From Paraconexibacter algicola (GTDB lineage Bacteria > Actinomycetota > Thermoleophilia > Solirubrobacterales > Solirubrobacteraceae), in assembly GCF_003044185.1 (NCBI RefSeq), contig NZ_PYYB01000001.1, forward strand, positions 992,001-1,056,000: a stretch of 64,000 nucleotides of DNA. Direction: 5' to 3'. A program made the position numbers and the translations under genes. Of the stretch, positions 8,017 to 9,509 are shown one piece after another. The notes under the pieces are model-generated. The model saw only the letters and a program-made list of their open reading frames with translations, did not search any database and was not told where the DNA came from. Position 1 is the stretch's first letter. Each line of letters opens with the position of its first letter.

Positions 8017-8703
8017 ATGGGCGAACCGCTGCGCGTCGTGCGACTGGGGACCGTCGAGTACCGCCAGGCCCTGGCGATCCAGGAGCGCCTGCGCGAGGCG
8101 CGCCAGGCGGACGAGGTCCCGGACACGCTGCTCGTCCTCGACCACCCGCCGGTGCTGACCGTGGGGCGCCGTCGCGGCGAGGGCGACCTGCCGATGGGCG
8201 CCGCCTGGTACCTGGGGAACGGGATCGACGTCGTCGAGGTCAATCGCGGCGGCAAGGTCACCTACCACGGGCCCGGCCAGGTGGTCGGCTATCCGATCAT
8301 GCGCGTCACCGACGTGGTCGGTCTGGTCCGCGACATGGAGCAGGCGCTGATCGCCGCGCTCGCCACCGAGCACGTGCCGGCGCACAGCCGCACCTGCGAG
8401 GGCCCGGACTTCACCGGCGTGTGGGTCGAGGACCGCAAGATCGCGTCGATCGGCGTGCACGTCGCCAAGGGCGTCACGATGCACGGCTTCGCGATCAACG
8501 TCAGCAACGACATGCAGCCGTGGAACTGGATCGTGCCGTGCGGCCTGAGCGAGGTCCAGATGACCTCGCTGTACCTGGAGAACGGCCGCCCCGACCGCCT
8601 CTCCCCGTTCACGGACGCGATCGTCGCCGCGTTCGCGCAGCGCCTGGACCGCGAGGTCCAGGAGACCGACGCCGCCGCGCTCGGCCAGCTCGTCACCGGC
8701 TGA
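8017..8703 (+). CDS. lipB: Octanoyltransferase (lipoate-protein ligase B)
   Basis: LipB moves the octanoyl chain from acyl carrier protein to the lipoyl domains of E2 and GcvH, the first step of lipoate biosynthesis. The 228-residue sequence shows LLVLDHPPVLTVGRR, RGGKVTYHGPGQVVGYPI, KIASIGVHVAKGVTMHGFAINV and PCGLSEVQMTSL; the Cys of PCGL and the Lys of KIASIG are the catalytic dyad. ATG 8017 was preferred over a GTG at 7999 because it gives the normal N-terminus and sits 6 nt after a CACGAT hexamer that could be a -10. LipA, which completes the pathway, is 7.4 kb downstream rather than adjacent. Confidence 0.95.
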   Translation: MGEPLRVVRLGTVEYRQALAIQERLREARQADEVPDTLLVLDHPPVLTVGRRRGEGDLPMGAAWYLGNGIDVVEVNRGGKVTYHGPGQVVGYPIMRVTDVVGLVRDMEQALIAALATEHVPAHSRTCEGPDFTGVWVEDRKIASIGVHVAKGVTMHGFAINVSNDMQPWNWIVPCGLSEVQMTSLYLENGRPDRLSPFTDAIVAAFAQRLDREVQETDAAALGQLVTG

Positions 8704-8736
8704 TCGGGAGCGCCGGGCGCGCCCCAACGCACGGCC

Positions 8737-8784
8737 GTACTGGGTGATCTGCGTGCCATATCTGGGCTCGGGCTCGCCCAGTAC
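8737..8784. repeat. 48-nt palindromic repeat, copy A
   Basis: The left arm GTACTGGGTGATC (8737-8749) and right arm GCTCGCCCAGTAC (8772-8784) flank a 22-nt centre containing TGCC-ATATCT-GG. The outer eight bases pair perfectly; inside there is one T opposite G (a wobble if transcribed) and one mismatch. Same 13-22-13 architecture as copies B and C. Confidence 0.8.
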
Positions 8785-8809
8785 CGCGCGGTGCGCGCCA
8801 CGTGCCGTC

Positions 8810-8857
8810 GTACTGGGTGATCTGCGTGCCACATGTGGACCTGCGATCACCCAGAAC
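8810..8857. repeat. 48-nt palindromic repeat, copy B
   Basis: The left arm GTACTGGGTGATC (8810-8822) is identical to copy A. The right arm GATCACCCAGAAC (8845-8857) is identical to copy C. Ten central arm bases pair perfectly. The 22-nt centre contains TGCC-ACATGT-GG, itself including the palindrome CCACATGTGG. Confidence 0.85.
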
Positions 8858-8953
8858 CGCGGACCCCGCGCCGCGAGCGTGCGCCGGGGCGTCCCCTGAC
8901 GCCCGCCGCGCCCGAGCGCCACCGCGCGCGCCCGCCGGCCCGCCCGCACGGCC

Positions 8954-9001
8954 GAACTGGGTGATCTGGATGCCGGATATGGGCCGCAGATCACCCAGAA
9001 C
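8954..9001. repeat. 48-nt palindromic repeat, copy C
   Basis: The left arm GAACTGGGTGATC (8954-8966) and right arm GATCACCCAGAAC (8989-9001) pair, with CTGGGTGATCT matching AGATCACCCAG over 11 bp. The centre contains TGCC-GGATAT-GG. The GCC...GG core is kept while the six bases within differ in all three copies. Confidence 0.85.
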
Positions 9002-9063
9002 CGCCCGGGTCGGGCCGGGCGCGCCCCGGCGAACGCGCGTGCTCGCGGCGCCCGCGCCGCGTG

Positions 9064-9429
9064 CTACTCGCCGGCGTTCGCAGCCGCGACGCCCAGGGCG
9101 ACGGCGCCGGCGGCGGTGAGGCCGCCGAGGACGGCGGTGGTCTTGGGGAGGCTGCCGTCGCGACCGCCGAGGACGGCGCTGACGACGTCGGCGGCGTCGG
9201 TGAGGACGCCGATCTTGATCCAGGTCGCGCGGGACGGGCCGGTCGTGGCGTTGGTGCCGACCGCGAGCGCGACGTCGCGGGCGCCGAACAGACGGGCCAT
9301 GTAGGAGGCCTGCGGGTTGGCGTCGACGTCCATGCCGAAGAGCTTGCCGAGGGTGTTGGGGGCGACGAAGGCTCCGACGCCGACGGCGATGCGGAGTCCG
9401 GTGAGGAGCTGGAGGGGGTTCTTGGCCAT
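9064..9429 (-). CDS. DUF4267-like small membrane protein
   Basis: ATG 9429 gives 121 residues with about four hydrophobic segments: LLTGLRIAVGVGAFVAPNTLGKLFGM; ARLFGARDVALAVGT; WIKIGVLTDAADVVSAVLGG; and TTAVLGGLTAAGAVALGVAA. The pattern (helix, GxxDxxxP-like turn, ArLfGaRDvaLa) resembles DUF4267 / hypothetical actinobacterial proteins of about 120 residues. Function is unknown. A TAGGGT hexamer (9437-9442, minus strand) lies 7 nt upstream with no Shine-Dalgarno, so a leaderless start is likely. The divergent neighbour is the ferredoxin reductase-desaturase operon. Confidence 0.7.
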   Translation of the reverse strand: MAKNPLQLLTGLRIAVGVGAFVAPNTLGKLFGMDVDANPQASYMARLFGARDVALAVGTNATTGPSRATWIKIGVLTDAADVVSAVLGGRDGSLPKTTAVLGGLTAAGAVALGVAAANAGE

Positions 9430-9471: not shown

Positions 9472-9509
9472 TGACATGAAACGATGTCACATGATTCCAT
9501 GACATGTGA
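9472..9509. promoter_or_regulatory. Two overlapping inverted repeats (probable operator) before the desaturase operon
   Basis: In a conspicuously AT-richer stretch, TGACAT (9472-9477) and ATGTCA (9484-9489) form a 6-bp inverted repeat with a 6-nt gap. TCACATG (9487-9493) and CATGTGA (9503-9509) form a perfect 7-bp inverted repeat with a 9-nt gap. They share bases 9487-9489. The block also contains TTGACA (9471-9476), a consensus -35. It lies between divergent genes and is most likely a TetR/GntR-type operator controlling desaturation; no cognate regulator gene is adjacent. Confidence 0.6.

What the first reader, a model, noticed from the sequence alone, without database searches (positions are those of the whole stretch)
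8737..9001. Three 48-nt palindromic units of fixed 13-22-13 design between lipB and a small membrane-protein gene
Each copy has a CTGGGTGATC-type left arm, a GATCACCCAG-type right arm and a 22-nt centre with TGCC-N6-GG, and all three are exactly 48 nt long. The six core bases differ in every copy, and copy A has lost one right arm with partial compensation (T opposite G). Such constancy of structure with variable core looks selected. It could be a REP/RAYT-like element, a small structured RNA or a protein-binding array. I do not recognise it as a described family.
Basis: seen in the sequence. Interest (0 to 1): 0.72.

Follow-up and report, generated by a model that had tools for sequence, protein, structure and literature searches.

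The report
Dyad DNA repeats at gene ends
The three "48-letter palindromes" are members of a real family of about 44 near-identical mirror-symmetric DNA elements that sit only at the ends of unrelated housekeeping genes in one actinobacterial species, look like protein-binding or REP-like gene-end elements, and have distant cousins with altered arms in a few relatives.

Summary
The genome holds 22 perfect CTGGGTGATC-N22-GATCACCCAG copies and about 44 in all (reversed-pattern control 0). The consensus is CGWW-CTGGGTGATC-N6-CC(R)(K)AT(M)(Y)GG-N6-GATCACCCAG-WWCG. Every copy is intergenic, and none lies between divergent genes. The 6-nt spacers do not pair within copies and there is no covariation, so sequence-specific recognition explains the arms better than a selected hairpin. 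Copies sit 73 bp apart five times (74 once) with unrelated DNA between. The outer A/T flank is polar with respect to dnaA.

Congeners lack the family, and two junctions have no such array in one of them. Two species of another family of the order carry a version with altered arms and the same centre, at orthologous 3' ends of ftsZ, guaA and a pfkB gene. One congener has other ~50-nt gene-end dyad families. There is no Y1 (RAYT) transposase in this genome, no Rfam match, no phage or plasmid match, and no coding explanation.

Best reading: a lineage-specific gene-end DNA element bound by an unidentified dimeric protein, probably a bidirectional transcription boundary. A RAYT-less REP-like hairpin element is a close rival. 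Protein, transcripts and mechanism are untested.

The parts
8737..8784 (.). Element copy A (48 nt): GTA-CTGGGTGATC-TGCGTG-CCATATCTGG-GCTCGG-GCTCGCCCAG-TAC; right arm with 2 substitutions
   Evidence: C1:1000740 in genome coordinates
8810..8857 (.). Element copy B (48 nt), perfect arms; start lies exactly 73 bp after copy A
8954..9001 (.). Element copy C (48 nt), perfect arms; 144 bp after copy B
8704..9063 (.). 360-bp intergenic region between convergent genes that holds the array; in congener G007 the same two genes are about 19 bp apart and no element is present
8017..8703 (+). lipB (lipoyl(octanoyl) transferase, Pfam LplA-B_cat), 3' end faces the array
9064..9429 (-). small membrane-protein gene (weak DUF4267 match, below cut-off), convergent with lipB, 3' end faces the array (an ATG upstream at 9477 is also possible)

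Best explanation
The units are members of a lineage-specific family of double-stranded, dyad-symmetric DNA sites placed at the 3' ends of genes, mostly between convergent genes. Shown: three conserved blocks (outer arm about 13 bp, centre CC-RKATMY-GG, mirror arm) at fixed distances, variable 6-bp spacers that do not pair, exclusively 3'/intergenic placement, recurrent 73-bp packing. Inferred: a dimeric (or two-domain) DNA-binding protein contacts arms and centre, and neighbouring sites at 73 bp (7 helical turns) bind cooperatively on one face. The bound array acts as a bidirectional transcription boundary, a roadblock that stops readthrough from either convergent gene. The protein is not identified.
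For: 22 exact and about 44 total copies, reversed control 0. Positionwise conservation is symmetric in three blocks, with information falling off in the spacers. Spacers are not complementary within copies; 500/500 shuffles pair better, so the constant arm sequence is not explained by RNA pairing. Twenty-one element-bearing intergenic regions: 11 convergent, 10 tandem, 0 divergent, against 12/53/37 elsewhere (P of no divergent 8e-5 by count, 0.0025 by bp). Spacing 73 bp shared by 5 of 17 neighbouring pairs (simulation P about 1.5e-5) although the DNA between is unrelated and the pairs are not recent duplicates. All spacings under 100 bp are near whole helical turns (P about 0.01). Flanking genes share no function (lipB, rpsG, ruvB, a SufB/D-family gene, a fumarase/aspartase-family lyase and others). 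In another family of the order the element persists at orthologous 3' ends (ftsZ, pfkB-like) while flanks diverge.
Against: No binding protein identified; no transcript or ChIP data. The family is absent from congeners, so it is not essential to the clade. Units can fold as hairpins (z -3 to -4). Within-cluster copies are more alike than between clusters, showing local duplication as in a spreading repeat. The roadblock role itself is inference from position only.
Confidence: 0.42

Rival explanations
1. RAYT-less REP-like element: a short extragenic palindrome that spreads by copying and local duplication, folds as a hairpin in either transcript and protects mRNA 3' ends or helps termination. 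The spacers would be obligatory internal loops.
For: Same genomic placement as REPs (3' ends, convergent and tandem; PMC3733652); hairpin energies better than shuffles; local duplication within clusters; lipB junction 360 bp here against about 19 bp in a congener; species-specific families, with other ~50-nt gene-end dyads f1/f2 in congener G007.
Against: No Y1/RAYT gene in this genome; no covariation in arms or spacers; fixed 73-bp spacing with unrelated DNA between; variable non-pairing spacers of exactly 6 nt; no terminator-like T tract.
Confidence: 0.35
2. Chromosome-organising site (nucleoid, segregation or replication related) whose position at gene ends only reflects avoidance of coding and promoter DNA.
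For: Outer A/T flank is polar relative to dnaA (right flank AA in 15/19 copies on one side, 1/16 on the other, P 2e-5; flank-only model 15:2 vs 0:15, P 2.4e-7; cluster level P 0.005) without matching regional AT skew. One degenerate copy in the 1.22 Mb of contigs C2, C3 and C6, against nearly all on C1.
Against: Core asymmetry and arm decay do not follow the same polarity significantly (P 0.51 and 0.06). dnaA is only a proxy for oriC; contigs C2-C6 are unplaced; a regional lineage effect is possible; strong bias to convergent junctions is not required by this model.
Confidence: 0.15
3. Attachment sites of a site-specific recombinase or remains of a miniature transposon.
For: 13-bp arms around a centre with a fixed palindromic AT dinucleotide resembles large-serine-recombinase attP anatomy (from general knowledge); two PF07508 genes in this genome.
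Against: G125 carries the elements but no PF07508 gene; neither recombinase gene lies beside an element; no direct target duplications seen around copies; copies lie between ordinary genes, without cargo.
Confidence: 0.04

Closest known systems
REP / BIME elements with RAYT (GTAG and CGTC families)
   Same: Short extragenic palindromes, many copies, between convergent or tandem genes, species-specific, locally clustered
   Different: 42-48 nt rather than 20-40; constant arm sequence with 6-nt non-pairing spacers; fixed 73-bp spacing; no GTAG/CGTC tag seen; no Y1 transposase in this genome
Mycobacteriophage stoperators (repressor sites that block elongation; from general knowledge)
   Same: Many dispersed copies of a protein site in short intergenic regions, unrelated to gene function
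   Different: Stoperators are about 13 bp, asymmetric and phage-borne; these are 48-bp dyads in a bacterial chromosome, and no binding protein is known
SlmA/Noc/MatP/KOPS-type chromosome sites (from general knowledge)
   Same: Tens of copies, palindromic or polar relative to replication, unrelated to gene function
   Different: Those are 8-16 bp and not tied to gene 3' ends; the link to replication here is one statistical association
Large serine integrase attP sites (from general knowledge)
   Same: About 50 bp, inverted arms, central dinucleotide
   Different: About 44 copies at gene ends with no cargo; element-bearing G125 has no PF07508 gene

Membership tests
REP (general definition: extragenic, palindromic, short, similar, multicopy; PMC12306157) | Extragenic, repeated, palindromic | tested here: met
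REP (general definition: extragenic, palindromic, short, similar, multicopy; PMC12306157) | Palindromy serves a stem-loop | tested here: inconclusive
   folds better than shuffles but no covariation, spacers unpaired
REP/RAYT (REPtron) | Y1 tyrosine transposase (PF01797) in the genome | tested here: not met
   0 matches in G000, one congener positive as a working comparison; genome 95.6% complete; not tested in G117/G125
REP/RAYT (REPtron) | GTAG or CGTC tetranucleotide at one end | tested here: not met
   flanks are CGWW/WWCG on both sides, mixed TT, TA and AA
Intrinsic terminator | GC stem followed by T tract | tested here: not met
   0 in the region; arm sequence constant between copies
Known structured RNA (Rfam 15) | Match above gathering score | tested here: not met
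   only two tRNAs in the window
Large serine integrase att site | Cognate recombinase gene in each carrier genome | tested here: not met
   none in G125
Dimeric protein operator / roadblock site | Bound by a specific protein | not testable with these tools
   inferred from dyad blocks and spacing only

The most novel reading that the evidence does not exclude
These genomes use protein-bound, dyad-symmetric 'boundary elements' of about 48-51 bp at gene 3' ends, with arms that turn over between lineages while length, three-block layout and placement stay, packed at 7 helical turns and with a flank oriented relative to the replication origin: a bacterial gene-end insulator system not described before.
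Probability: 0.22. Interest if true: 0.78.

Novelty: new variant of a known kind. Interest (0 to 1): 0.55.

Why it matters
If a protein reads these sites, it would be a new way for bacteria to separate converging transcription units, in a class (Thermoleophilia) whose gene-end biology appears little studied. If they are REP-like, they are a REP family without a RAYT in its genome, with fixed spacing and position-dependent flank polarity, which would make the question of how such repeats spread directly testable.

Tried and rejected
RAYT/REPtron: no Y1 transposase in this genome. Structured RNA: no Rfam hit, anti-covariation. The anti-covariation itself is explained by units with two unlike halves lying in both orientations, so it should not be read as selection against pairing. 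Intrinsic terminator: no T tract. Protein-coding gene across the interval: no Pfam match in the three overlapping ORFs, and the spacing of 73 bp does not keep one frame. Phage or plasmid origin: no match in phages, only trivial plasmid matches, no viral-contig match. Serine recombinase sites. Exact pattern in 84,980 GTDB species: 0 (own genome may be left out). Downstream of ftsZ in 80 GTDB loci: no such dyad. Mutational strand bias as cause of the flank polarity: intergenic AT skew near zero in both arms. Orientation of the core halves (types I/II) does not follow the replication arm. Orientation shows no consistent relation to flanking gene direction (read by eye).

Full report
Observation. 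The three units are in the sequence as described: 42-nt cores at 8740, 8813 and 8957, 48 nt with three flanking bases on each side. Copy A keeps its right arm but with two substitutions.

Census. The window's own genome (4.74 Mb, 6 contigs, 95.6% complete) contains 22 exact CTGGGTGATC-N22-GATCACCCAG; the reversed control pattern gives none. With substitutions allowed there are 39 clear copies in 17 clusters and about five degenerate ones with CTGGGCGG- or CCGGGTG-type arms; the relaxed pattern counts 43. The 39 clear copies all have exactly the same length.

Anatomy. Information content shows three blocks: CG-WW-CTGGGTGATC, then six weakly constrained positions, then CC-R-K-A-T-M-Y-GG, then the mirror image. 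The central AT is invariant in 39/39. The two spacers of one copy are not complementary: pairing within copies is lower than after shuffling partners in 500 of 500 shuffles. An orientation model shows why: units have two unlike halves and lie in both orientations (likelihood gain 77.8 against 45.6, sd 4.3, in simulated symmetric families). So there is no covariation for a hairpin, although single units fold better than shuffles because the arms are inverted.

Placement. By a simple codon-usage gene caller (not a curated annotation), all 39 copies are intergenic (one overlaps the last bases of a called gene). Of 21 element-bearing intergenic regions 11 are convergent, 10 tandem, 0 divergent; other intergenic regions of at least 60 bp are 12, 53 and 37. 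The first copy often lies 10-110 bp after a stop codon. The genes are unrelated housekeeping genes: lipB, ribosomal S7, ruvB, a SufB/D-family gene, a fumarase/aspartase-family lyase, a GTP_EFTU-family GTPase and others.

Spacing. Neighbouring copies are 73 bp apart five times and 74 once, then 83, 84, 95 and more. Five of 17 sharing one value has P about 1.5e-5 under a uniform model. The 31 bp between such copies are unrelated and those pairs are not especially similar, so the distance, not a recent duplication, seems kept. All distinct spacings below 100 bp are near whole helical turns (P about 0.01, four values only). Copies within a cluster are on the whole more alike, in direct orientation, than copies of different clusters (0 of 1502 permutations): local duplication also occurs.

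Relatives. No exact copy in 60 relatives including seven congeners; relaxed forms in 3 of 151 relatives and 3 of 399 genomes of the class: this genome and two species, G117 and G125, of one genus in another family of the order. In G117/G125 the element reads GCAKTGGGCGKGAT-N2-CGCCC-RKATMY-GGGCG-N2-ATCMCGCCCAMTGC: same length and centre, altered arms and spacers. It stands at the same gene ends in both species, after ftsZ and after a pfkB-family kinase, and is better conserved than its flanks there; both also have a copy after guaA, but at shifted positions. G125 has a further subfamily CGATCGGGAT-N2-TGCC..GGCA-N2-ATCCCG. In the congener G007 lipB and the small gene are still convergent but about 19 bp apart with no element, and no array follows ruvB there, so the arrays are lineage-specific gains here or losses there.

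Polarity. dnaA lies at C1:1,248,487. The outer WW flank is asymmetric: the right flank is AA in 15 of 19 copies left of dnaA and 1 of 16 right of it; the left flank is TT in 7 of 19 and 15 of 16. At cluster level P is 0.005. Intergenic AT skew is near zero in both arms. The core halves do not follow this polarity (P 0.51), arm decay only weakly (P 0.06). This is one association, found after looking, with dnaA as a proxy for the origin and unplaced contigs; a regional lineage effect is not excluded.

What it is not. No Y1/RAYT gene in this genome, no Rfam family, no T-tract terminator, no coding explanation, no phage, viral-contig or meaningful plasmid match, no serine recombinase in element-bearing G125.

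Reading. Constant sequence in three blocks at constant distances, with spacers free of pairing, is what a symmetric protein-DNA site looks like; 3'-end placement between convergent genes suggests a bidirectional boundary to transcription. Protein-bound roadblocks to RNA polymerase are known in general (PMC10310618, abstract), but none of this kind was found in the papers searched. The close rival is a RAYT-less REP-like repeat: REPs also sit between convergent and tandem genes (PMC3733652). A general REP definition (PMC12306157) is met in form, but the stem-loop criterion is unresolved. I keep both, with the site model slightly ahead, and the chromosome-organisation model third. The steps from site to protein and from protein to boundary are inference.

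Noticed in passing
Congener G007 loci L209:13978, L211:13407, L273:2313, L275:6917 and 7014, L277:5119, L283:5907, L291:14868: Another ~47-49 nt palindromic family (f1), GGCGTGCGGTCTCGTGGG-N2-ATAT-N2-CCCACGAGACCGCACGCC, near gene 3' ends; about 9 copies in 810 kb.
   Followed up: partly
Congener G007 loci L203:16921 and 17939, L218:9962, L219:207, L275:18029, L278:5701, L289:10611, L210:18410: A 51-nt dyad family (f2), CGCCGACTGACAGCT - about 21-nt near-dyad centre - AGCTGTCAGTCGGCG, at gene 3' ends (5 convergent, 3 tandem), similar three-block layout to the window element with unrelated sequence. With f1, 9 of 16 convergent and 0 divergent.
   Followed up: partly
Congener G007 loci L202:14226 and 19547, L220:10744: Third ~50-nt family (f3), GCCGAGACCCG-N27-CGGGTCTCGGC.
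   Followed up: no
G125 loci L259, L260, L261: Second subfamily in G125 with arms CGATCGGGAT and a similar AT-centred core between TGCC and GGCA.
   Followed up: no
G000 contigs C2, C3, C6 (1.22 Mb together): Only one degenerate copy there against nearly all copies on C1; possible bias toward the dnaA-bearing part of the chromosome. Contig order unknown.
   Followed up: partly
G000 C1:606024-606311 and C3:463022-463237: Two large serine recombinase genes (PF07508), neither beside an element.
   Followed up: no
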